64,000 bases of DNA from Hydrogenophaga sp. GTDB taxonomy: Bacteria > Pseudomonadota > Gammaproteobacteria > Burkholderiales > Burkholderiaceae_C. Location of the stretch: the NCBI RefSeq assembly GCF_019264445.1, contig NZ_JAHVAB010000057.1:1-64000 (forward strand), in the 5' to 3' direction. The position numbers were made by a program, and so were the translations under genes. The notes under the pieces were generated by a model that saw nothing but the letters and a program-made list of their open reading frames with translations, was not told where the DNA came from and did not search any database. Below are positions 1-8,019 of this stretch, one piece after another; within the stretch, counting starts at the first letter, position 1, and each line of letters begins with the position of its first letter.

Positions 1-1
1 C

Positions 2-440
2 GTCGGTAGCGGCATCAGCGAACATCAAAATCTCCCAGAAACTGATGCCTATTGGAATTCAAACCGGGAGTTTTGGGTATCCGTGATCACCCCGAAACAT
101 AAGCATTCATGCGGGCGTCAGGGGTTTTGCAGGAGCGACTAAGAAAGCGGACCTCGGCGCGACGTTCATCAAGATCGGCAGCAACAACCGACGGCTGAAA
201 ATCTGGAACAAGGGGAAATCGGCCGCGCGCAACGTGTCGCTGTCGTTTCCCGATGGCAACGACTGCCTGGTTCAATCGGACATCGACTCGAAATTTCCGC
301 TAGAGACACTGGACACGCTCCAGTCGGTGGAATTGATTGCGTCCATATCACTGGGTAGCAAAAGCAAGCACTCCATCAAGCTGACGTGGAGCGACGATTT
401 CAGCGATCACAACGAGAAGGTGGTCTACCCGACGATCTGA
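2..440 (+). pseudogene. Broken hypothetical protein, C-terminal part (partial at window edge)
   Basis: Two reading frames follow one another. Frame 2 is open from the window edge to a TAA at 140-142 and includes NREFWVSVITP, which looks like the start of a membrane segment. Frame 3 is open from about 87 to a TGA at 438-440 and encodes a soluble C-terminal domain containing KKADLGATFIKIGSNNRRLK and a tail ending in NEKVVYPTI. No good start codon or ribosome site precedes the second frame. The simplest reading is one membrane-anchored hypothetical gene broken by a frameshift or small deletion near 90-140. It converges on the PIN-like gene at 466. No function is recognised. Confidence 0.4.
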
Positions 441-465: not shown

Positions 466-1284
466 CTAGGAATAGAGCTGGCCGTCGGGACAAAGCAGAC
501 CAAACCACCGCTGCAGTTTCTTTTCTCGCGTGGCGAACGATCCTTCCAGTGTTCCCAACAGGAGGTAGTGCGCGTCGAGAACATCGTGCTCGATTTTCTC
601 GTAGGCTTTTCCGCTCAGTGTGTCGGGAACACGTCCACCATAACGACAATATGCGTCCAGCGCGAAAAGCAACTGGACCTGCTGCCAACGAAATAGTGCC
701 CAATCCCGGGTCATGATCGTGGCAGGCGGTAGTGGAAGTTCGCCCGAAGGGACTTCCAGGCTCCCGTAGAACTTCAACATTGCATCGGTATTGGTCGCGA
801 TGACCTCCTCGGCGGCCTCCCGCAGTGACTGTCGCTCCGCGCTGGTGCCTTCCAGAAGATTTGGGATTAGGGTCGGAATCAAGCGCACCCGGTCAAGAAA
901 TCGTTCGACATCTTCACGAAGTTCCGCCGTCTGCTCCTGAAGCGCCTCAGCCGCCGAAGGCGGCAGCGCGTAGTTCGCGCCGGTCAGCGCCTCGTTGAAT
1001 TGGAAGCGGATATCCTCGTACCGCGTAGAGGGCTTGCCGCAGGCTTCGTGCGACTCTATCTCCTGTTTCAGCAGCGCCCCTACGTGATTGACCAAGATCA
1101 CCGGGTTCTCGATCTTGGGAAACTTGGCGAAGCAGCGCGAGCGTCCCGGTTCGGACGACGAGATCAACTCGTAGAAAAGTACGTCGGCCATCAGCAACTG
1201 GTGCGACTGCGCGAGTTGCAGCATGTGCGCCGCCGTCGATCCTTGCAGGTAGTTCTTGTCGAGAACAATCGTGGGCTTTGCCAT
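466..1284 (-). CDS. PIN-like domain protein, last gene of the putative defence cassette
   Basis: 272 aa, soluble. The N-terminus TIVLDKNYLQG supplies an early acidic residue (D9), followed by D34 and E39. Near the C-terminus, EHDVLDAHYLLLG (D234, D237) and FATREKKL (251-257) follow the pattern of the last strands of a PIN nuclease, but with E254 where the usual TxD aspartate sits. The middle (about 110-165) is helical. It begins 11 bp after the ATPase stop, so the two are almost certainly cotranscribed. PIN domains are metal-dependent RNases and often act as toxins or as effectors paired with ATPases; that role here is inferred. The match is by motif only and the fold assignment is moderately sure. 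No clear Shine-Dalgarno site precedes the ATG. Confidence 0.6.
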   Translation of the reverse strand: MAKPTIVLDKNYLQGSTAAHMLQLAQSHQLLMADVLFYELISSSEPGRSRCFAKFPKIENPVILVNHVGALLKQEIESHEACGKPSTRYEDIRFQFNEALTGANYALPPSAAEALQEQTAELREDVERFLDRVRLIPTLIPNLLEGTSAERQSLREAAEEVIATNTDAMLKFYGSLEVPSGELPLPPATIMTRDWALFRWQQVQLLFALDAYCRYGGRVPDTLSGKAYEKIEHDVLDAHYLLLGTLEGSFATREKKLQRWFGLLCPDGQLYS

Positions 1285-1295
1285 TGAAGTCCGGA

Positions 1296-3935
1296 TCAGC
1301 TAAAGGTCGCCGCCTGGGGCTTGGCTTTCTCCCATGCCTTGCGCGCTGTGTTGTACTCAGCCTTGATGCGGTCCATCTGTGCCAATTCGTCAACCACGAA
1401 ATCAATCGTCAACGGCACTTCGTGGAAGTCTGGCGAGTGGGAGTGAGCATCGATGTATCGGGATAACATCACCATGCGCGTGTGAACCTGTGCAGCAATG
1501 CCTTCATCAAAATACACCTGACTGAGGGTGAAGGTGATGTTCTCCCGCCAGCGGCGCACGACATTGCCGAACAGCTTTCGCTGAATGAAGTCCTCATAGG
1601 CGGTACGCAGGCTGCCACACGCCTTCTCCAGGCTGTCGCGCTGCTTGTCGCCATCCAGCGTGCGGGCGACGTCAAGGTGCTTTCGTGCGCGATCGTGTGC
1701 AGCACCTTCGTAATGTTCGTGAGGGAAGGCCAGGCTGTCGATGACACCTGGCTCTTCGGCCTCGCCACGCCACACGGTCCGGCCCGCGAAATCGACACCC
1801 TTTTCCACCGCAGCCGTCGCCAGATAGTTCGTAAACAGGATGTCGTGCGTAAAGACGATCACCTGCCGCTTGGCGGCTTCGTCCACCAGGCGTTGTGCGA
1901 TCGCCTCTTTGCGTACATGGTCCATCGAGGTCACGGGGTCATCGAACACCACGCCCAAACAGGAACCGTTGAGTTCCACTTCAGTGAGAAAGTCGGCCAA
2001 TGCCGCGGCGGTCTGTTCGCCCTCGCTCAGCACCGAAGACGGGTCGATGCCGGCCACGCTGGCGTTGGCAATCTCGATTTTGCGATCAGTCGTTCCAGCA
2101 TCGCCCGCGAAGCGGAATTGCACCGGCAGCTTGAGCTGCAGGGCGGCGCAGTTCTCCGTGAATCGCGCGATGAAGCCCTGCGCCACCAGTTCTGTGGCCA
2201 GCGCTTTCTGCTTGCTGGTCACTTCGCGTTGGGATACGGCAAAGCCGCGGATGCACGAATTGGCCTTCACCACCCATTTGAGGTCTGCCACCGCCGCAGC
2301 GATGGCATCGTACTGGCCGGAGAGCACCTGGCGATCGAGTAACAATCGCTCCTCTGCCATCAACGACCCCATCAGTACCTTGGGGTCCTTCTGTCGCAAG
2401 GCATCGTTGTCGGATTTCAGGCGCTCAACCAACTCCGTGATGCGTACCGAGACCGGGTCATGGTCCAACATGCTCAAGCCAGGGTCGAAGGCACCGGCAA
2501 CCGCCCGCGCCAATGCTCCGATGACTTCCCGATAGCCTTCGACATGACTGGAAACCGCCGCGGCCATTGCGGCATCCACCTCGGTCAAGGTCCGGCGCGC
2601 GACACTGCCCTCGTCGAAGAAGGCGAGACTGATCTTCGACAACTTCGTGCCATACCCTGCGAGCGTTGTCTTGGCCTGGCCAAGCTGCGCTTCGACACCA
2701 CTGGTTGCGAACTGATAGAAGCGGGTCAATCGTGCAATGCCGTCTTCGTCGAGAACCTGATGGCAAAGCACGCATCGGGCCGCATCCGCCTTCGGTGGAA
2801 ACGCCTCGTCAGGATAGGCTTCGGCGTTGTAAGCAATGGCCGCAGCCAGCAGGTCACGCCATGCTGCTGTGCCGATGGGCTGCACCGGCTCCTCGCCCAA
2901 CTGTGCCGCTGAGAGCGCTGACGCCTTTTCCGTCAGCGTCTGAATCTGCTTGACGGCATTGGTGATCTGTTCCGCGACTGCAGGCGATACAGCCATGTGC
3001 AAACCTGAGATCGATGCTTTCAGTGCGTCCAGATCGATGATGCGCTGCTCATTCTGGCGAATGATCTCCTTGGGATCGGTGGTCCTGAGTGTCGCGAGTT
3101 GCTGGACAACCGATTCCAGGCGCGCGCGCTCCTCGTCGCCGAAGGCGGCCAATGCCTGCAAGCCAACGAGGTCCGTCTGTGCCGTCAGGGTGATCAGCAG
3201 CGAAGCGACTTCGGACGTGCTGCCTGGAATCGCGAACTTGTCCGTAGCGTGGGAACGTAGAGCGATGTCATCGCGCAGCTTGCGCTGGAGCTTTCCGAAG
3301 ACCTCCACCATGCGGGGAAAAACATCGAACAGATAAGGCATGACTTGGAAGGCATTGCGCTCATCCAGATGGACACGCACGCAGGTCGAGTCGAACACCG
3401 CGAAGTTGTCGCGCAGTCGCTGGCAAGGCTCCTTGTAGACAAATGTCGTGTTGGAGCCGTCGTCGAAGGCAAACGTCGCGCTAGGCGTGGGTTGTTTGTG
3501 CTTGGCCAACTTCACATCGCCGAGAATCGCGGTTTGCTTGGAACGGGTGAAGCATGCGGCTTTGAGCACTCGCGCATAGCCGGACTTGCCCGCACCGTTG
3601 GGACCATAGATCACAGTGAGCTTGCGCCCGAAAGTCAGTGTTTCACCCGGCGCCAGGGCGTTGACGCCGGTCAGTGCGGTCATGGCGGTCACTACGCTTG
3701 AGTCCGTTGTGGGGCCGCCTTGGATCTGGGGCAAGGCGATGTCCCATGTGGCGCGTGGCATCTCCGTGGTGGCCAGTTGCTGGTCCATCAAGTACTCGCG
3801 GTAGACCTCATCCAAAGCCTCGTCCGGGAAATCGACGGCGCCAACGAGTTTGACCAGCAGGCACCGCTGCCAGTTGGAAAGCGTCTTGCCCCAAGCGGAC
3901 AGCGCATCGAAGACATTGAACGCCGCTTGCGACAT
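1296..3935 (-). CDS. Zinc-hook AAA_13-type ATPase, PrrC/RloC-like
   Basis: 879 aa. Walker A GPNGAGKS is at 111-118; a CVLC zinc-hook motif (C388, C391) sits in the middle of a long helical region; the ABC signature LSEGEQ is near 636-641, Walker B VVFDDP at 662-667, D-loop TSMD, and the H-loop FTHD at 695-698. This is the layout of PrrC/RloC anticodon nucleases (AAA_13), in which an ABC-type ATPase controls a C-terminal tRNA nuclease; RloC differs from PrrC by having the zinc hook. The C-terminal 150 residues include R777-x3-E781, the spacing of the PrrC Arg/Glu pair, with His at 818 and 831 as possible partners, but this catalytic assignment is tentative. Ribosome site AAGGA lies 6 bp before the ATG. 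A palindrome at 4007-4032 precedes the gene and a PIN-like gene follows 11 bp later. Confidence 0.75.
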   Translation of the reverse strand: MSQAAFNVFDALSAWGKTLSNWQRCLLVKLVGAVDFPDEALDEVYREYLMDQQLATTEMPRATWDIALPQIQGGPTTDSSVVTAMTALTGVNALAPGETLTFGRKLTVIYGPNGAGKSGYARVLKAACFTRSKQTAILGDVKLAKHKQPTPSATFAFDDGSNTTFVYKEPCQRLRDNFAVFDSTCVRVHLDERNAFQVMPYLFDVFPRMVEVFGKLQRKLRDDIALRSHATDKFAIPGSTSEVASLLITLTAQTDLVGLQALAAFGDEERARLESVVQQLATLRTTDPKEIIRQNEQRIIDLDALKASISGLHMAVSPAVAEQITNAVKQIQTLTEKASALSAAQLGEEPVQPIGTAAWRDLLAAAIAYNAEAYPDEAFPPKADAARCVLCHQVLDEDGIARLTRFYQFATSGVEAQLGQAKTTLAGYGTKLSKISLAFFDEGSVARRTLTEVDAAMAAAVSSHVEGYREVIGALARAVAGAFDPGLSMLDHDPVSVRITELVERLKSDNDALRQKDPKVLMGSLMAEERLLLDRQVLSGQYDAIAAAVADLKWVVKANSCIRGFAVSQREVTSKQKALATELVAQGFIARFTENCAALQLKLPVQFRFAGDAGTTDRKIEIANASVAGIDPSSVLSEGEQTAAALADFLTEVELNGSCLGVVFDDPVTSMDHVRKEAIAQRLVDEAAKRQVIVFTHDILFTNYLATAAVEKGVDFAGRTVWRGEAEEPGVIDSLAFPHEHYEGAAHDRARKHLDVARTLDGDKQRDSLEKACGSLRTAYEDFIQRKLFGNVVRRWRENITFTLSQVYFDEGIAAQVHTRMVMLSRYIDAHSHSPDFHEVPLTIDFVVDELAQMDRIKAEYNTARKAWEKAKPQAATFS

Positions 3936-4006
3936 GAAGATTCCTTGTTTTAAGCCATTTGAATCTCGTTCAACAGGCTGGGACGGTCTATTCAGAGGAG
4001 GCAGGT

Positions 4007-4032
4007 GATTGTCGTATCACGATACAACAATC
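4007..4032. promoter_or_regulatory. Operator-like inverted repeat upstream of the ATPase gene
   Basis: Arms GATTGTCGTATC and GATACAACAATC are separated by AC; they are complementary at 11 of 12 positions. No T-run follows on either strand, so it does not look like a terminator. It lies 72 bp upstream of the ATPase start, in the only sizeable gap of the cassette, and is best read as a binding site for a dimeric regulator controlling the ATPase/PIN pair. The regulator is unknown. Confidence 0.55.
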
Positions 4033-4054
4033 GATCAGGACGGCGTTGCGACGC

Positions 4055-4873
4055 CTACGAAAAGGACACTGCCGCTTTCTGCACGCCATCCAGTTTTCTA
4101 TGGATCAGTGAAACCAGCGTCAAGATGTCGAGCGCATCCTGCTCAGACATAGGCCAATTCGTCTTCGGGGCATGGGCCAAGGGATTGCGCACGGCGCCGA
4201 ACAGACCGATTAGCAAGTTCGCAAATCCTCTCTGCTCGCTCTTTTCGGACTCGGTGCTCAGTGGTCCCAAGACCAAGATTGGCTGCTGACCCGCGAACGC
4301 CTTGTTCACCAAGTCGGCACCATCGCCGGTCAACCCCGACAGTATGCGAATTCGCTCGGCGACACCCTTGCTCGCCTCGAAGACCGCATGAAAATAGTTC
4401 TCGTCCAACAGCTCGGCTCGGCAGTAATTCAAGACCTCCGCATGGACGACTCTGCTTTCCAGCGCCGCCTTGAGACGTCCAGCGCGTGCGCGGGCTGCAT
4501 CCAACGTCGTCGCCTTGTCGGCATATCCCACCTTGCCATCGTCGCGAACATAGAAGCCAGAGAACGCCAGCACGACATTGAGTTCATCCCGCAGCCAAGC
4601 AAATGTTCCAGGATCGCGCACGTAGTTCACCGGGTTCATTGCGCGGTTGATGAACATAATCAGATGGTTGCCTCGCTGATGCTTGTTCTGCAACTCGGCG
4701 AGCGCGTTGAACAACCGCTTCCACTTCGTCATGCCCGGCGATGGGTCGATCACTTCCATCTCTTGCAGCAGCCTCCCAATCTGTGTGCCACTCAAGCCGC
4801 GCTCGGTGTCTGCAAGCACACGGCAGGCAGCTTCAAGATGCTGAGAACTGAACAGGTCAATTTGCGCCGCCAT
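4055..4873 (-). CDS. TIGR02391-type HEPN protein (Ymh family)
   Basis: 272 aa. The C-terminal domain carries AVRNPLAHAPKTNW, with R229 and H234 forming the R-x4-H motif of HEPN ribonucleases; the surrounding sequence (LLIGLFGAVRNPLAH, then SEQDALDILTLVSLIHRKLD) is typical of the TIGR02391/Hypoth_Ymh family. The N-terminal half has a winged-helix-like segment (residues 10-60) and a domain of unknown role. HEPN proteins in defence loci are usually RNases acting in abortive infection, but the activity of this family is not known to me. It starts 17 bp after the upstream nuclease-like gene, with GAGG as a plausible ribosome site, so the two are probably cotranscribed. Confidence 0.75.
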   Translation of the reverse strand: MAAQIDLFSSQHLEAACRVLADTERGLSGTQIGRLLQEMEVIDPSPGMTKWKRLFNALAELQNKHQRGNHLIMFINRAMNPVNYVRDPGTFAWLRDELNVVLAFSGFYVRDDGKVGYADKATTLDAARARAGRLKAALESRVVHAEVLNYCRAELLDENYFHAVFEASKGVAERIRILSGLTGDGADLVNKAFAGQQPILVLGPLSTESEKSEQRGFANLLIGLFGAVRNPLAHAPKTNWPMSEQDALDILTLVSLIHRKLDGVQKAAVSFS

Positions 4874-4890
4874 TGCCGACCTCTCCGCGT

Positions 4891-5832
4891 TTAGCGGACG
4901 ACAACATCGAACGGTGCATGCACCGAGCGAAAGGTAGCGAGGATGCGGTCACGGGCGCAATCCAGTTCGTCCGCTACACGAGAACTGAGCATGTAGGTGG
5001 GGCAGTCCGCCTTGCCGCATTCACAATGCCGGATCTCGCCTTCTCGGAGGCGAGAGACGAAGATGCGGCGCAGTTCATCGACTTGACGCACAACCTGGGC
5101 CAGCACCTTGCGAACACGCTGATCTCTGATGTGATGGATCGATGGAATGCGCCGAATTTCGGTGCCTTCACGTGTTCTCCACGCTCCGGTGTTGAGTGCT
5201 CGAATGGTGTCCTCAACAGCTTGCTGGAAGGCGGGTAGCGAACTTTCCTGTTGAAAAGGTGTGCGAAAAGCAGGCCGGTCGAATACGGCAGCCATCAAAC
5301 CCAGCGCCTCGGCGTCGGATAAGCCAGGGAAGTCATCAACGAATTTTCGGATCTCAGCTTCGGCTTCGGGGAACTCGACTCCCTGGACGAAGCGGTGCAA
5401 GAGGTATTCGCCACGCAAACGCAGGTTCTCCTCGAACTCGACGCTCGACCAGATCGTCACATGCGCTACGCCAAGTGCAGCAGCGCTATCGCTGATCCGT
5501 GTTCTGCTGGCGTCAGAGACTGCACCACGACAGATGAATTTGAAAGCATCTGGCGTACCGCCAGTAGCCTCGACAGCCTTCTCCATATCGGTTCGGGCTT
5601 TCGCCAGGGTCAGCATGTCACGATTAGCGCACTGGATAATCGTCTTGCGCGAAGGTCGATCGTCAAACTCCTCGATTCCGAAGATGTCTCGTCCCTGGTC
5701 GCTACCCGATTGGCCGTGCCAGATCAGGTCGCGCCAGCCGGTACGAACGTGATAAGCAAAAGCAAGGCGCTCAAATTGAACGCCGCTGTAGTCTTCAAAG
5801 TGAATCGGATGAACGATGCTTGCCATAGGCAT
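4891..5832 (-). CDS. Restriction-endonuclease-like protein with N-terminal PD-(D/E)XK-type domain
   Basis: 313 aa. Residues 18-70 follow the Mrr-like endonuclease pattern: QFERLAFAYHV (helix with a conserved Glu), GQSGSDQGRDIFG (Gly/Asp-rich strand), then TIIQCAN where the family has the (D/E)xK strand; the usual lysine is replaced by N70 or shifted, so activity is uncertain. Residues 75-145 look like the rest of a Rossmann-like fold. The C-terminal half is helical and contains CECGKADCP, a possible metal-binding knuckle. The start is only 6 bp after the antitoxin stop, which couples this nuclease-like gene to the toxin-antitoxin pair. A DNA-cleaving role is inferred. Confidence 0.6.
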   Translation of the reverse strand: MPMASIVHPIHFEDYSGVQFERLAFAYHVRTGWRDLIWHGQSGSDQGRDIFGIEEFDDRPSRKTIIQCANRDMLTLAKARTDMEKAVEATGGTPDAFKFICRGAVSDASRTRISDSAAALGVAHVTIWSSVEFEENLRLRGEYLLHRFVQGVEFPEAEAEIRKFVDDFPGLSDAEALGLMAAVFDRPAFRTPFQQESSLPAFQQAVEDTIRALNTGAWRTREGTEIRRIPSIHHIRDQRVRKVLAQVVRQVDELRRIFVSRLREGEIRHCECGKADCPTYMLSSRVADELDCARDRILATFRSVHAPFDVVVR

Positions 5833-5838
5833 CGAACA

Positions 5839-6156
5839 TCAAGCCGCGTGCGCCGAGGGCGCAGAAGCCAGCGGCTGCACAGCCAAGCGTAGGCCCATCG
5901 TCTTGAGGATGGCGGTCAAGCTGTTCAGGGCGGGATTGCCCTTCGGCGACAACGTGCGGTAAAGCTGCGTCGGGTTAAGGTGAGCCTGTTCGGCCACCGC
6001 CTGCACGCCGCCGACTGTCTGCGCAAGCTGGCGCAGCACGGTCATCAGTTCGGCTTGGTCGCCATCGGCCAGGATGTTGTTGATGACTTCAAGTGCGAGC
6101 GCCGGATCGTTGCGGTACAGCTCGGCCATCGCCTCGTCATGGGATTTGCCTCTCAT
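5839..6156 (-). CDS. HigA-like antitoxin, addiction module antidote protein
   Basis: 105 aa from the chosen start. Residues about 60-95 form an Xre-type helix-turn-helix (GGVQAVAEQAHLNPTQLYRT...NPALNSLTAIL) typical of the COG3636 antidote family that pairs with Gp49/HigB-like toxins. The ATG at 6156 overlaps the toxin stop as ATGA and has GGAG 9 bp upstream; a longer form from 6186 would overlap the toxin by 34 bp and is less likely. It binds and neutralises the toxin and probably represses the operon. The following nuclease-like gene begins 6 bp after its stop. Confidence 0.85.
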   Translation of the reverse strand: MRGKSHDEAMAELYRNDPALALEVINNILADGDQAELMTVLRQLAQTVGGVQAVAEQAHLNPTQLYRTLSPKGNPALNSLTAILKTMGLRLAVQPLASAPSAHAA

Positions 6157-6482
6157 TCGTCGATTCTCCGTTGCCAGTCCTGCCAATAGCCCACCGCCCG
6201 GTCAATGTCCGCATCCTGGGTGCGCTTGTCGCCACCACACAGCAGCAGCACCAACCGTTGCCCCGCTAGGCCGTAATAAACCCGATAGCCAGGCCCCGCG
6301 TCGATGCGCAGCTCCCACACGCCATCTCGGCAAAACTTGTGGTCGCCGAAGTTGCCTTGCTCGATACGGGCCACGCGGCGGATGACCGCCACCTTGGCTT
6401 GTGCATCACGCAAGCGCCGCAGCCAGTCGGTGTAGAGATCCTTCTGTACGTCGGCCGAGAGGTAGTGCTCGATTCGGTACAT
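6153..6482 (-). CDS. RelE/HigB-like toxin (Gp49-type mRNA interferase)
   Basis: 109 aa. The core DHKFCRDGVWELRIDAGPGYRVYYGLAGQRLVLLLCGGDKRTQDADID is that of the phage-derived Gp49/HigB toxin family, with conserved ELRI, GYR(V)YY and GGDKxTQ(xx)DI elements. The family cleaves mRNA on the ribosome. The toxin gene comes first, as in higBA. No ribosome site precedes the ATG, and a TATAAA-like -10 (6499-6494 on the minus strand) sits only 12 bp upstream, so the transcript may be nearly leaderless. The pair heads the leftward six-gene cassette. Confidence 0.85.
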   Translation of the reverse strand: MYRIEHYLSADVQKDLYTDWLRRLRDAQAKVAVIRRVARIEQGNFGDHKFCRDGVWELRIDAGPGYRVYYGLAGQRLVLLLCGGDKRTQDADIDRAVGYWQDWQRRIDE

Positions 6483-6583: not shown

Positions 6584-7783
6584 TCATGCTTCGACCTCCG
6601 CCTGGCGTTGCGCACCCGTGATCGTCTTGCGCCGGGCCGCCACTAGTTCGGCCGCTTGCCGCACCGGATCGTCCTCGGTATGGACGTAGCGCATGAACAT
6701 CGCCGCGGTCTTGTGCGCTGTCAGCGCCATGCCGACCTTTAGGGGAACGCCCGAATTGGCAATGTCGGTCGCCGAGCGGTGGCGGATACCGTGAGTGCCG
6801 ACCTTCGGCACACCGGCACGGTCAAGGATGCGCCGCCACGCCTGATAGTAGGTGTGGGTGCTGAGGGGCTTGCTGTGGTCGAGGATCGCCGGGCAGACAT
6901 AGGGCGAATCGCCGTAGCGAGGAGCATTGGTCAGCCGCCGGCGGGCTTCCTCACTCAAGGGCTTGGACATATCGCCGGTCTTGCTGTCCGGCCAGACCAC
7001 CCGGCCGTTGGGTAGGTCGAGCCAATCCCACTGCAAGAGCAGGACTTCCGACATGCGTGCGGCGAACTCGAATTGCAGCCGGACTGCCAGCAGGTGGGTG
7101 GGATGCTCCAAGCCTTCGGCCTCGGCCTTCTCCAGATAGGTGAACAGCTTGGTCATCTGGTCGTCGGTGATGAGCCGGGTCGAACCCTTTTCCGGGTACT
7201 TGGGGACGTGGCGGCACGGGTTGGAGCCATCGGGCCGGTAGCCCCACAGCTCGGCCAGGTTGAACATCTTGCGGACGAGCGACAGCACCCGGTTAGCCTG
7301 GGTGGGCGACTTCTCCATGCGCTTCATCAGCGCGGTGATGTCGTGGCGTGTGACCTCGTGAACCTTCTTGCTGCCGAAGGCCGGGATGACGAAGCTGTCG
7401 ATCTGGTACTGGTAGCCGGCCTGTGTGCTGGGCTTGTTGTGCGGCTTGGAGTGGTCGTCCATGAACCGGCCGCACAGCTCCTTGACCGTCGGCGCCTTGC
7501 GGGATTCGGCCTTGTCGAGTCCGGGATCGCCCCCGCGCCGGACTTCGGCCAGCCAGTCTTGCGCAAGCAATCGCGCCTGTTCGACCGTCAGTTCGCCGAA
7601 CTGGCCGATTGCCGGCTTGCGCCGCACGCCGGAGTTCGTGCGGTACTGAACCATGAAGACCTTGCGGCCCGTTGGTGTAATCTTGCACAAGAAGCCCGGA
7701 ACGAGCGTATCCCGGAGTTCCACGTCGCAGGTTTGAGCCTGCGATGTGTCAACGACGGACTTGGTGAGTTTGACCTTCGCCAT
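6584..7783 (-). CDS. Tyrosine-family site-specific integrase (phage/island type)
   Basis: 399 aa. N-terminal arm-binding domain of DUF4102-like type (residues 1-90), SAM-like core-binding domain (about 97-185), catalytic domain after 200. Catalytic residues are visible: R243 (AARMSEV), K268 (DSKTG), H331 and R334 (HGIRH), H357 (LTAHKT) and Y366 (MRYVH). It would cut and rejoin DNA at attachment sites. CAGGAG lies 6 bp before the ATG. A tRNA-Leu 3' fragment lies 177 bp upstream of its start, fitting a tRNA-targeting island integrase with its att site beside it. Confidence 0.95.
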   Translation of the reverse strand: MAKVKLTKSVVDTSQAQTCDVELRDTLVPGFLCKITPTGRKVFMVQYRTNSGVRRKPAIGQFGELTVEQARLLAQDWLAEVRRGGDPGLDKAESRKAPTVKELCGRFMDDHSKPHNKPSTQAGYQYQIDSFVIPAFGSKKVHEVTRHDITALMKRMEKSPTQANRVLSLVRKMFNLAELWGYRPDGSNPCRHVPKYPEKGSTRLITDDQMTKLFTYLEKAEAEGLEHPTHLLAVRLQFEFAARMSEVLLLQWDWLDLPNGRVVWPDSKTGDMSKPLSEEARRRLTNAPRYGDSPYVCPAILDHSKPLSTHTYYQAWRRILDRAGVPKVGTHGIRHRSATDIANSGVPLKVGMALTAHKTAAMFMRYVHTEDDPVRQAAELVAARRKTITGAQRQAEVEA

Positions 7784-7959
7784 GAGGTGCTCCTGAAAGG
7801 CCCCGATTCCAGGGGCCGGCTAGGAGCCAGGCGGAGGGGAACCGGGGCGGTTTGCATCGCGCACCGGGATATGATCGAAGGCACTGGCCTCGGGGAAAAC
7901 CTGCTGCAGCAAGCCTCATCCAAGCCCATCCTTAGTCCGGTGCGGATGCCATGCTCAGG

Positions 7960-8019
7960 CTTAAAATCCGCCGCATCCTGAAAAGGGGCGTACCGGTTCG
8001 ACCCCGGTTCGAGGCACCA
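7960..8019 (+). other. Attachment site: 3' fragment of a tRNA-Leu(UAA) gene
   Basis: From TTAAAATCCGCC (anticodon loop with UAA and 3' stem) the sequence runs through a variable arm, a T arm (ACCGG, loop TTCGACC, CCGGT) and an acceptor 3' strand ending ACCA at 8019. The 5' half is absent: the bases before it cannot form the anticodon stem, D arm or acceptor. This is what island integration into the 3' half of a tRNA gene leaves at the distal end. The integrase side (left) is then island and the right side chromosome; the intact tRNA-Leu should lie left of this window. Confidence 0.75.

What the first reader, a model, noticed from the sequence alone, without database searches (positions are those of the whole stretch)
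466..6482. Six-gene cassette: toxin-antitoxin, nuclease-like, HEPN, zinc-hook ATPase, PIN-like
All six genes point left. The antitoxin stop is 6 bp from the nuclease-like start, that gene is 17 bp from the HEPN gene, and the ATPase is 11 bp from the PIN-like gene. Four different potential nuclease or RNase folds plus a sensor-type ATPase beside an island integrase is a composition I do not recognise as a named system. The seen facts are gene order, spacing and motifs; the defence role is inferred. It may be one system, or two (REase-HEPN and ATPase-PIN) under separate promoters.
Basis: partly seen in the sequence, partly recalled or inferred. Interest (0 to 1): 0.85.

Follow-up and report, generated by a model that had tools for sequence, protein, structure and literature searches.

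The report
Mobile cargo: PD-Lambda-3-like plus RloC-PIN
A mobile DNA element carries a compact cargo of probable anti-virus genes, among them a relative of a known cell-sacrificing defence and a probable tRNA-cutting enzyme of the RloC type that sits next to an undescribed second nuclease-like gene, which gives testable new combinations of mostly known parts.

Summary
The six genes, their order and spacings are as described, but they read best as three modules, not one system. (1) A HI1419/HI1420-type toxin-antitoxin pair. [quoted passage not shown] Component A is absent, and the Mrr-like protein lacks the usual catalytic lysine in 32 of 32 aligned sequences. (3) The 'sensor ATPase' has the defining motifs of the anticodon nuclease RloC: ABC ATPase, CxxC, C-terminal R-x3-E-x49-H (37 of 37 aligned sequences with letters there). 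It is followed by a protein of an uncharacterised family with a predicted PIN fold. REase and HEPN genes occur together without RloC-PIN in 4 other lineages, two of them with A in between. RloC without PIN (8 of 8 flanked loci) and PIN without RloC (7 of 7 loci) occur elsewhere; RloC-PIN was seen only in this island lineage. The genes tested are under purifying selection. Verdict: new variant of known kinds; defence activity untested.

The parts
6153..6482 (-). toxin of a type II toxin-antitoxin pair, RelE/ParE-like, HI1419 (upstrm_HI1419) type, 109 aa
   Evidence: TIGR02683 E 1.6e-36, above cut-off; PF05973 Gp49 above cut-off
5839..6186 (-). antitoxin, HI1420 type, up to 115 aa (TTG start; ATG at residue 11)
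   Evidence: PF21716 above cut-off; TIGR02684 42.2 bits, below its 53.7 cut-off
4891..5832 (-). REase-like protein, 313 aa: N-terminal PD-(D/E)XK/Mrr fold without the usual catalytic Lys, mostly helical C-terminus with invariant C270-x-C272-x4-C277
4055..4873 (-). Ymh-family HEPN protein = PD-Lambda-3_B, 272 aa, RNPLAH at 229-234
   Evidence: PADLOC PD-Lambda-3_B E 7.6e-172; PF09509 E 9.7e-45; motif
4007..4032 (.). 26-bp inverted repeat in the HEPN-ATPase gap, possible operator or hairpin; also present in L012, L013 and L018, with better matching arms by eye
1296..3935 (-). RloC-type protein, 879 aa: ABC ATPase split by a CVLC zinc-hook motif (388-391), C-terminal triad R777-E781-H831
   Evidence: motifs; PF13166; PADLOC PDC-S06 E 4.4e-120
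466..1284 (-). PIN-fold protein of an uncharacterised family, 272 aa; invariant D9, E39, D234, D237, E247
   Evidence: 192 homologues; 0 family matches in Pfam, NCBIfam, PADLOC, PHROGs at the limits used; invariant columns; model pLDDT 94.1; VIA top rows are PIN domains
142..440 (+). C-terminal remnant of a 158-aa membrane-type protein gene that converges on the PIN gene in intact copies; cut here at the contig start by a 141-bp repeat
   Evidence: intact in L008, L011, L013, L018 and L061; repeat copies
6584..7783 (-). tyrosine integrase of the island (carrier, not part of the defence modules)
   Evidence: PF00589, PF13356 above cut-offs
7958..8019 (+). 3' half of a tRNA-Leu gene (amino acid and anticodon UAA read by eye), chromosomal edge of the island
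   Evidence: L008, L011, L013 and L018 each have a different tRNA-like 3' half next to a nearly identical island edge; ARAGORN calls no complete tRNA there

Best explanation
A tRNA-Leu-integrating element carries three separately working modules. TA pair: a RelE/HigB-like toxin and its antitoxin, which probably stabilise the island (inferred). [quoted passage not shown] The Ymh HEPN protein is the RNase effector (inferred); the Mrr-fold protein, without the standard catalytic Lys, stands where the small PD-(D/E)XK protein A would be and most likely senses phage or foreign DNA and releases the HEPN RNase rather than cutting DNA itself (inferred). RloC-PIN: the ATPase with zinc hook is RloC. In studied RloC proteins DNA breaks activate a C-terminal nuclease that cuts tRNA anticodons and disables translation (published for G. 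kaustophilus and A. baylyi RloC; inferred here). The downstream PIN-fold protein is probably a second RNase, made together with RloC, that backs it up or tunes it (inferred, weakest step). Shown: genes, spacings, family and motif membership, predicted folds, purifying selection, recurrence of the island. Not shown: any activity, any interaction, any phage effect.
For: HEPN = PD-Lambda-3_B, 567.8 bits, 84-85% identical to B proteins next to PD-Lambda-3_A in two E. coli loci. PD-Lambda-3 is called an abortive-infection system (PMC13190303, passages seen). REase-HEPN pairs or REase-A-B triplets in 5 lineages: this island, L014, L017, L031, L020. RloC motifs: Walker A and CxxC in 38 of 38, R777/E781/H831 in 37 of 37 with letters, size 879 aa within the published 658-897. 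PIN fold: rows 1-38 of the 50 VIA rows are PIN, protein-only RNase P or PIN-containing chains, some identified by title and some by recall. Module independence: 8 of 8 flanked non-island RloC loci lack PIN, 7 of 7 non-island PIN loci lack RloC. The HEPN-RloC gap is 524-526 bp instead of 119 in L012, L013 and L018, and the extra DNA ends in what reads by eye like the end of a lost ORF. dN/dS 0.05-0.15 for the genes tested.
Confidence: 0.6

Rival explanations
1. One integrated six-gene defence system: the TA pair supplies promoter and control, the REase senses, RloC amplifies, and HEPN and PIN execute.
For: All six genes are co-inherited in 9 genomes (window included) in two sublineages 92-95% identical in DNA; antitoxin-REase gap 6 bp; a TA pair of another family also precedes a Ymh HEPN gene on plasmid pKAZ5 beside a 67% identical integrase.
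Against: REase and HEPN without RloC-PIN in L014, L017, L020, L031; RloC and PIN each without the other elsewhere; no relative of this TA pair in L014, L020, L021, L022 or L031 by the two queries used, which would miss other TA families; a gap of 524-526 bp between HEPN and RloC in L012, L013, L018.
Confidence: 0.13
2. REase-HEPN is a restriction-plus-suicide pair: the Mrr-fold protein is an active DNase (lysine moved, for instance to invariant K78) and HEPN is the second line of defence, as PrrC is for EcoprrI.
For: D45, D49, Q67, K78 invariant in 32 of 32; several of the best fold matches are restriction endonucleases by title; HEPN-restriction pairing is a recorded theme (PMC3710099, passages seen).
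Against: The Lys of (E/Q)xK is Ala (20) or Val (12) in 32 of 32; none of the seven island proteins scanned matches a methylase profile; component A, which has an intact-looking PD..ExK (read by eye from the sequence), is absent here.
Confidence: 0.2
3. The modules are neutral or decaying passengers of the element.
For: L017 has a frameshifted REase and a shortened HEPN ORF; the PIN of G345 lies in two pieces on two contigs, one with a stop inside; L019 is a fragment; the neighbouring 158-aa gene is cut in the window.
Against: dN/dS 0.05-0.15 in 16 of 16 gene comparisons (4 loci against the window); open frames for toxin, REase, HEPN, RloC and PIN in 9 of 9 other cassette records checked.
Confidence: 0.05

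Closest known systems
PD-Lambda-3 (Vassallo et al. 2022; PADLOC PD-Lambda-3_A and _B)
   Same: The B component (Ymh HEPN) matches its profile over nearly the whole length and is 84-85% identical to E. coli B proteins; a PD-(D/E)XK-type protein is encoded directly upstream.
   Different: Component A (159 aa) is absent; a 313-aa Mrr-fold protein without the catalytic Lys takes its place. In L020 and L031 this protein and A are both present.
RloC anticodon nuclease (Davidov and Kaufmann 2008, PMC2610378)
   Same: Split ABC ATPase, CxxC, R-x3-E-x36-52-H triad, size.
   Different: Followed at 11 bp by a PIN-fold gene; PADLOC files it as candidate PDC-S06; Ala, not the frequent Ser, precedes the triad His in the window protein.
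HARP (PIN_5 minimal RNase P) and VapC toxins
   Same: PIN core with inserted helices; acidic residues in comparable places.
   Different: No sequence match to a PIN chain of the PDB; larger (272 aa); activity unknown.
PrrC-EcoprrI and other HEPN-restriction pairings
   Same: A suicide RNase coupled to a DNA-recognising restriction-type protein (inferred here).
   Different: No type I subunits found among the cassette proteins; different HEPN family.

Membership tests
PD-Lambda-3 | Ymh HEPN component B | tested here: met
   PDLC03987 E 7.6e-172
PD-Lambda-3 | 159-aa component A next to B | tested here: not met
   tblastn with an E. coli A: no match at E <= 0.01 in the window, 8 cassette loci, L014 or L017 and none at E <= 0.001 in the window's own genome; the same query finds A in L007/L031, L021 and L022
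PD-Lambda-3 | abortive infection against lambda | not testable with these tools
   phenotype published for the E. coli system (PMC13190303, passages)
RloC | ABC ATPase motifs (Walker A, signature, Walker B) | tested here: met
   PF13166
RloC | CxxC hook inside the split ATPase, 658-897 aa | tested here: met
   C388 and C391 in 38 of 38 aligned sequences; window protein 879 aa (definition). The coiled coil itself was not computed.
RloC | C-terminal R-x3-E-x36-52-H | tested here: met
   R777, E781, H831 (x49) in 37 of 37 with letters there; 1 of 38 is truncated
RloC | anticodon nuclease activity | not testable with these tools
   -
RloC | direct sequence match to a named, tested RloC | not tested
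   no such sequence was compared; the PADLOC PrrC model matches at only 16.7 bits
HEPN RNase (Ymh, PF09509) | family profile and RX4-6H | tested here: met
   PF09509 151.7 bits, cut-off 25; RNPLAH
Mrr / PD-(D/E)XK nuclease | fold | tested here: met
Mrr / PD-(D/E)XK nuclease | catalytic D..(E/Q)xK | tested here: not met
   D49 and Q67 invariant, Lys position Ala or Val in 32 of 32
PIN-like superfamily | fold | tested here: met
PIN-like superfamily | conserved acidic residues that could form the active site | tested here: met
   D9, E39, D234, D237, E247 invariant in 38 of 38; their equivalence with HARP D7/D138/D142/D161 is inferred, not measured
HARP RNase P | sequence relationship / RNase P activity | tested here: inconclusive
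   profile search of the PDB: no PIN chain; activity not testable
HI1419/HI1420 toxin-antitoxin | both profiles at cut-off | tested here: inconclusive
   toxin TIGR02683 met; antitoxin TIGR02684 42.2 bits of 53.7, PF21716 met

The most novel reading that the evidence does not exclude
RloC-PIN is a two-component defence in which a new PIN family (HARP/VapC-like) acts with RloC on tRNA, for example by cutting a second site or by completing damage that phage tRNA repair could otherwise undo. In parallel, the Lys-less Mrr-fold protein is a DNA sensor that replaced or joined PD-Lambda-3_A as the trigger of the HEPN RNase, so that PD-Lambda-3 is one member of a modular 'trigger plus Ymh-HEPN' class.
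Probability: 0.3. Interest if true: 0.7.

Novelty: new variant of a known kind. Interest (0 to 1): 0.45.

Why it matters
It suggests that PD-Lambda-3 is modular: the HEPN effector keeps its sequence while its upstream partner changes (A; REase plus A; REase alone; on pKAZ5 neither), which makes the open question of what triggers this HEPN RNase testable by partner swaps in laboratory strains. It also puts an undescribed PIN family next to an RloC-type tRNA nuclease. Tools that require A and B together would be expected to miss the REase-HEPN form (inferred from the absence of A).

Tried and rejected
Rejected: a six-gene unit as the default reading, because sub-pairs occur without the rest. Rejected: 'sensor-type ATPase without effector', because of the C-terminal triad. 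Rejected: an active REase as the default, because the Lys is missing.

Led nowhere: sequence search of solved structures with PIN, RloC and REase (no relevant match); viral-contig scans with A2, P0244 and P0041 (0 relatives); PIN in plasmids and phages (none), also with a PIN from a viral contig (none); PIN in sampled genomes: 3 of 369 (class), 2 of 398 (phylum), 1 of 113 and 1 of 114 (relatives of two hits), 1 of 225 (order), each count including the window's own genome or the centre genome; REase alignment in the class sample: 1 of 369, the own genome. Promoter and terminator scans gave no more than chance. Rfam: one match, below its gathering score. Foldseek against viral structures with the REase model: none at E <= 0.001; the best (E 2.4e-3) is a phage protein named restriction endonuclease. 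Two metagenome protein clusters with equal contig length (4346) hinted at another RloC-PIN contig, but this is no better than chance by my rough estimate. A family absent from the VIA lists is not excluded.

Not resolved: the genomic context of the many near RloC relatives (2366 at E <= 0.001 among 8000 scored candidates, 120 listed) and of the metagenomic PIN relatives (192, 120 listed) could not be read; of near RloC relatives only the Yersinia ruckeri plasmid one (66.6%) was read. MAG contigs (L011, L012, L013, L016, L017, L019) may be misbinned, so their host names are uncertain.

Full report
WHAT IS THERE. The six minus-strand ORFs, their lengths and spacings match the finding. Profile searches place five of them: toxin TIGR02683/PF05973, antitoxin PF21716, HEPN PF09509, ATPase PF13166, and a weak, below-cut-off Mrr_cat match for the nuclease-like protein. 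PADLOC names the HEPN protein PD-Lambda-3_B (E 7.6e-172) and the ATPase the candidate PDC-S06 (E 4.4e-120). The PIN-like protein matches no family in Pfam, NCBIfam, PADLOC (E up to 0.1) or PHROGs (E up to 0.01).

THE ISLAND. The cassette lies between a tyrosine integrase (6584-7783) and, 465 bp beyond PIN, the start of contig C52. At the integrase side the edge is the 3' half of a tRNA-Leu gene (identity and anticodon UAA read by eye): L008, L011, L013 and L018 each carry their own tRNA-like 3' half joined to a nearly identical island edge. The cassette occurs with proteins 99.6-100% identical (the antitoxin shows 99.1% only because its TTG start is read as Leu) in Xenophilus E41 (two records, L008 and L010), Variovorax Root473 (L009), a Comamonadaceae MAG (L011), Variovorax CAN15 (L015) and a Hydrogenophaga MAG (L016), and at 93-97% in a Lysobacterales MAG (L012, integrase not on the contig), a Rhizobiaceae MAG (L013) and Stutzerimonas KOS6 (L018). 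G011 and G909 appear to be the L016 and L009 genomes, judged by equal contig lengths. With the window this makes 9 genomes. Toxin, REase, HEPN, RloC and PIN frames are open in 9 of 9 other cassette records. Of 12 loci found with the REase, 11 have the HEPN gene next to it and 9 have RloC and PIN; L019 is a fragment. dN/dS against the window is 0.05-0.15 in 16 of 16 comparisons (L018: toxin, REase, HEPN, RloC, PIN, integrase; L013 and L012: REase, HEPN, RloC, PIN; L014: REase, HEPN; the antitoxin was not tested).

RLOC. Davidov and Kaufmann define RloC by ABC ATPase motifs split by a coiled-coil/CxxC insert, 658-897 aa, and C-terminal R-x3-E-x36-52-H, and report that mutating R, E or H abolishes anticodon nuclease activity (PMC2610378, passages). 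The window protein has Walker A at 111, CVLC at 388, LSEGEQ at 636, Walker B near 662, and R777-E781-H831. In 38 aligned sequences (29 near ones sampled, 8 from fetched loci, and the query) the Cys pair is present in 38 and the triad in 37; the remaining one (L060) is truncated. DNA-break inducers activate RloC in A. baylyi and in heterologous hosts (PMC3874168, abstract and outline). In the 8 flanked non-island RloC loci (L053-L060; one at 66.6% identity, seven at about 27-31%) no PIN relative is found.

READING. The modules look assembled in an integrase-borne cargo slot: L017 has, beside a 59% identical integrase, other ATPase-type genes between integrase and REase (by eye), and L012, L013 and L018 have 524-526 bp instead of 119 bp between HEPN and RloC, with what reads by eye like the end of a lost ORF. 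I therefore read three modules. The TA pair stabilises. REase-HEPN is a PD-Lambda-3 variant with a Lys-less Mrr-fold trigger. RloC-PIN couples a break-sensing anticodon nuclease with a second RNase. The last pairing is supported only by the 11-bp spacing and joint purifying selection in one island lineage.

LITERATURE. PD-Lambda-3 by that name is in 2 papers of the held library, PDC-S06 in 4, the Ymh family names in 2. 'RloC' with 'PIN domain' and 'phage' is in 3; of these I saw passages of one (PMC3710099), with no RloC-PIN pair in the passages. From the listings I opened passages of PMC2610378 and PMC12322248 and the abstract of PMC3874168, and one passage of PMC11514479. I saw no description of an RloC-PIN or an REase-PD-Lambda-3_B pair in these; most subscription papers are not in the library, and supplements were not read. 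Vassallo et al. (PMC9519451): section 7, outline and passages read; its Fig. 3 gene drawings were not seen, and the name PD-Lambda-3 did not occur in its held text. One review table lists PD-Lambda-3 under PD(D/E)XK nucleases (PMC10952713, passage).

Noticed in passing
window 1-141: 141-bp repeat at the contig start, also at the start of C65 and inside C52 near 126275 (and 59 bp of it in C21); it cuts a 158-aa membrane-type gene that is intact in related islands, so an insertion sequence probably broke gene and assembly here.
   Followed up: partly
L008 13866-14153 and 13393-13869: Two genes converge on PIN: a 95-aa zinc-ribbon protein (weak, below-cut-off match to Lar restriction alleviation) and the 158-aa membrane-type protein; their role is unknown. 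The PIN gene of G351 (L029) also lies beside a membrane-type protein (197 aa).
   Followed up: partly
window 4007-4032: Inverted repeat in the HEPN-RloC gap, with better matching arms (by eye) in L012, L013 and L018: a possible operator for a separate RloC-PIN transcript.
   Followed up: partly
L033-L037: PIN-family genes in five viral contigs, directly after a tyrosine-integrase-like ORF where read: a possible stand-alone defence gene of prophages.
   Followed up: partly
L023 (plasmid pKAZ5) 6826-8109; L031 9466-10356: A 427-aa protein of unknown family follows PD-Lambda-3_B in both places (89% identical over residues 1-297), possibly a further partner of this HEPN protein.
   Followed up: no
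L020 3736-14293: E. coli 0H26 carries REase-A-B next to a Qat defence locus and a HEPN/Toprim-associated gene.
   Followed up: no
L073 3875-8483: Acidisarcina plasmid: the Mrr-fold domain starts a 1152-aa protein followed by a Swt1-type HEPN gene, a possible fused analogue of REase-HEPN.
   Followed up: no
L017 1580-4677: ATPase-type genes between a related integrase and the REase, which suggests an exchangeable cargo slot.
   Followed up: no
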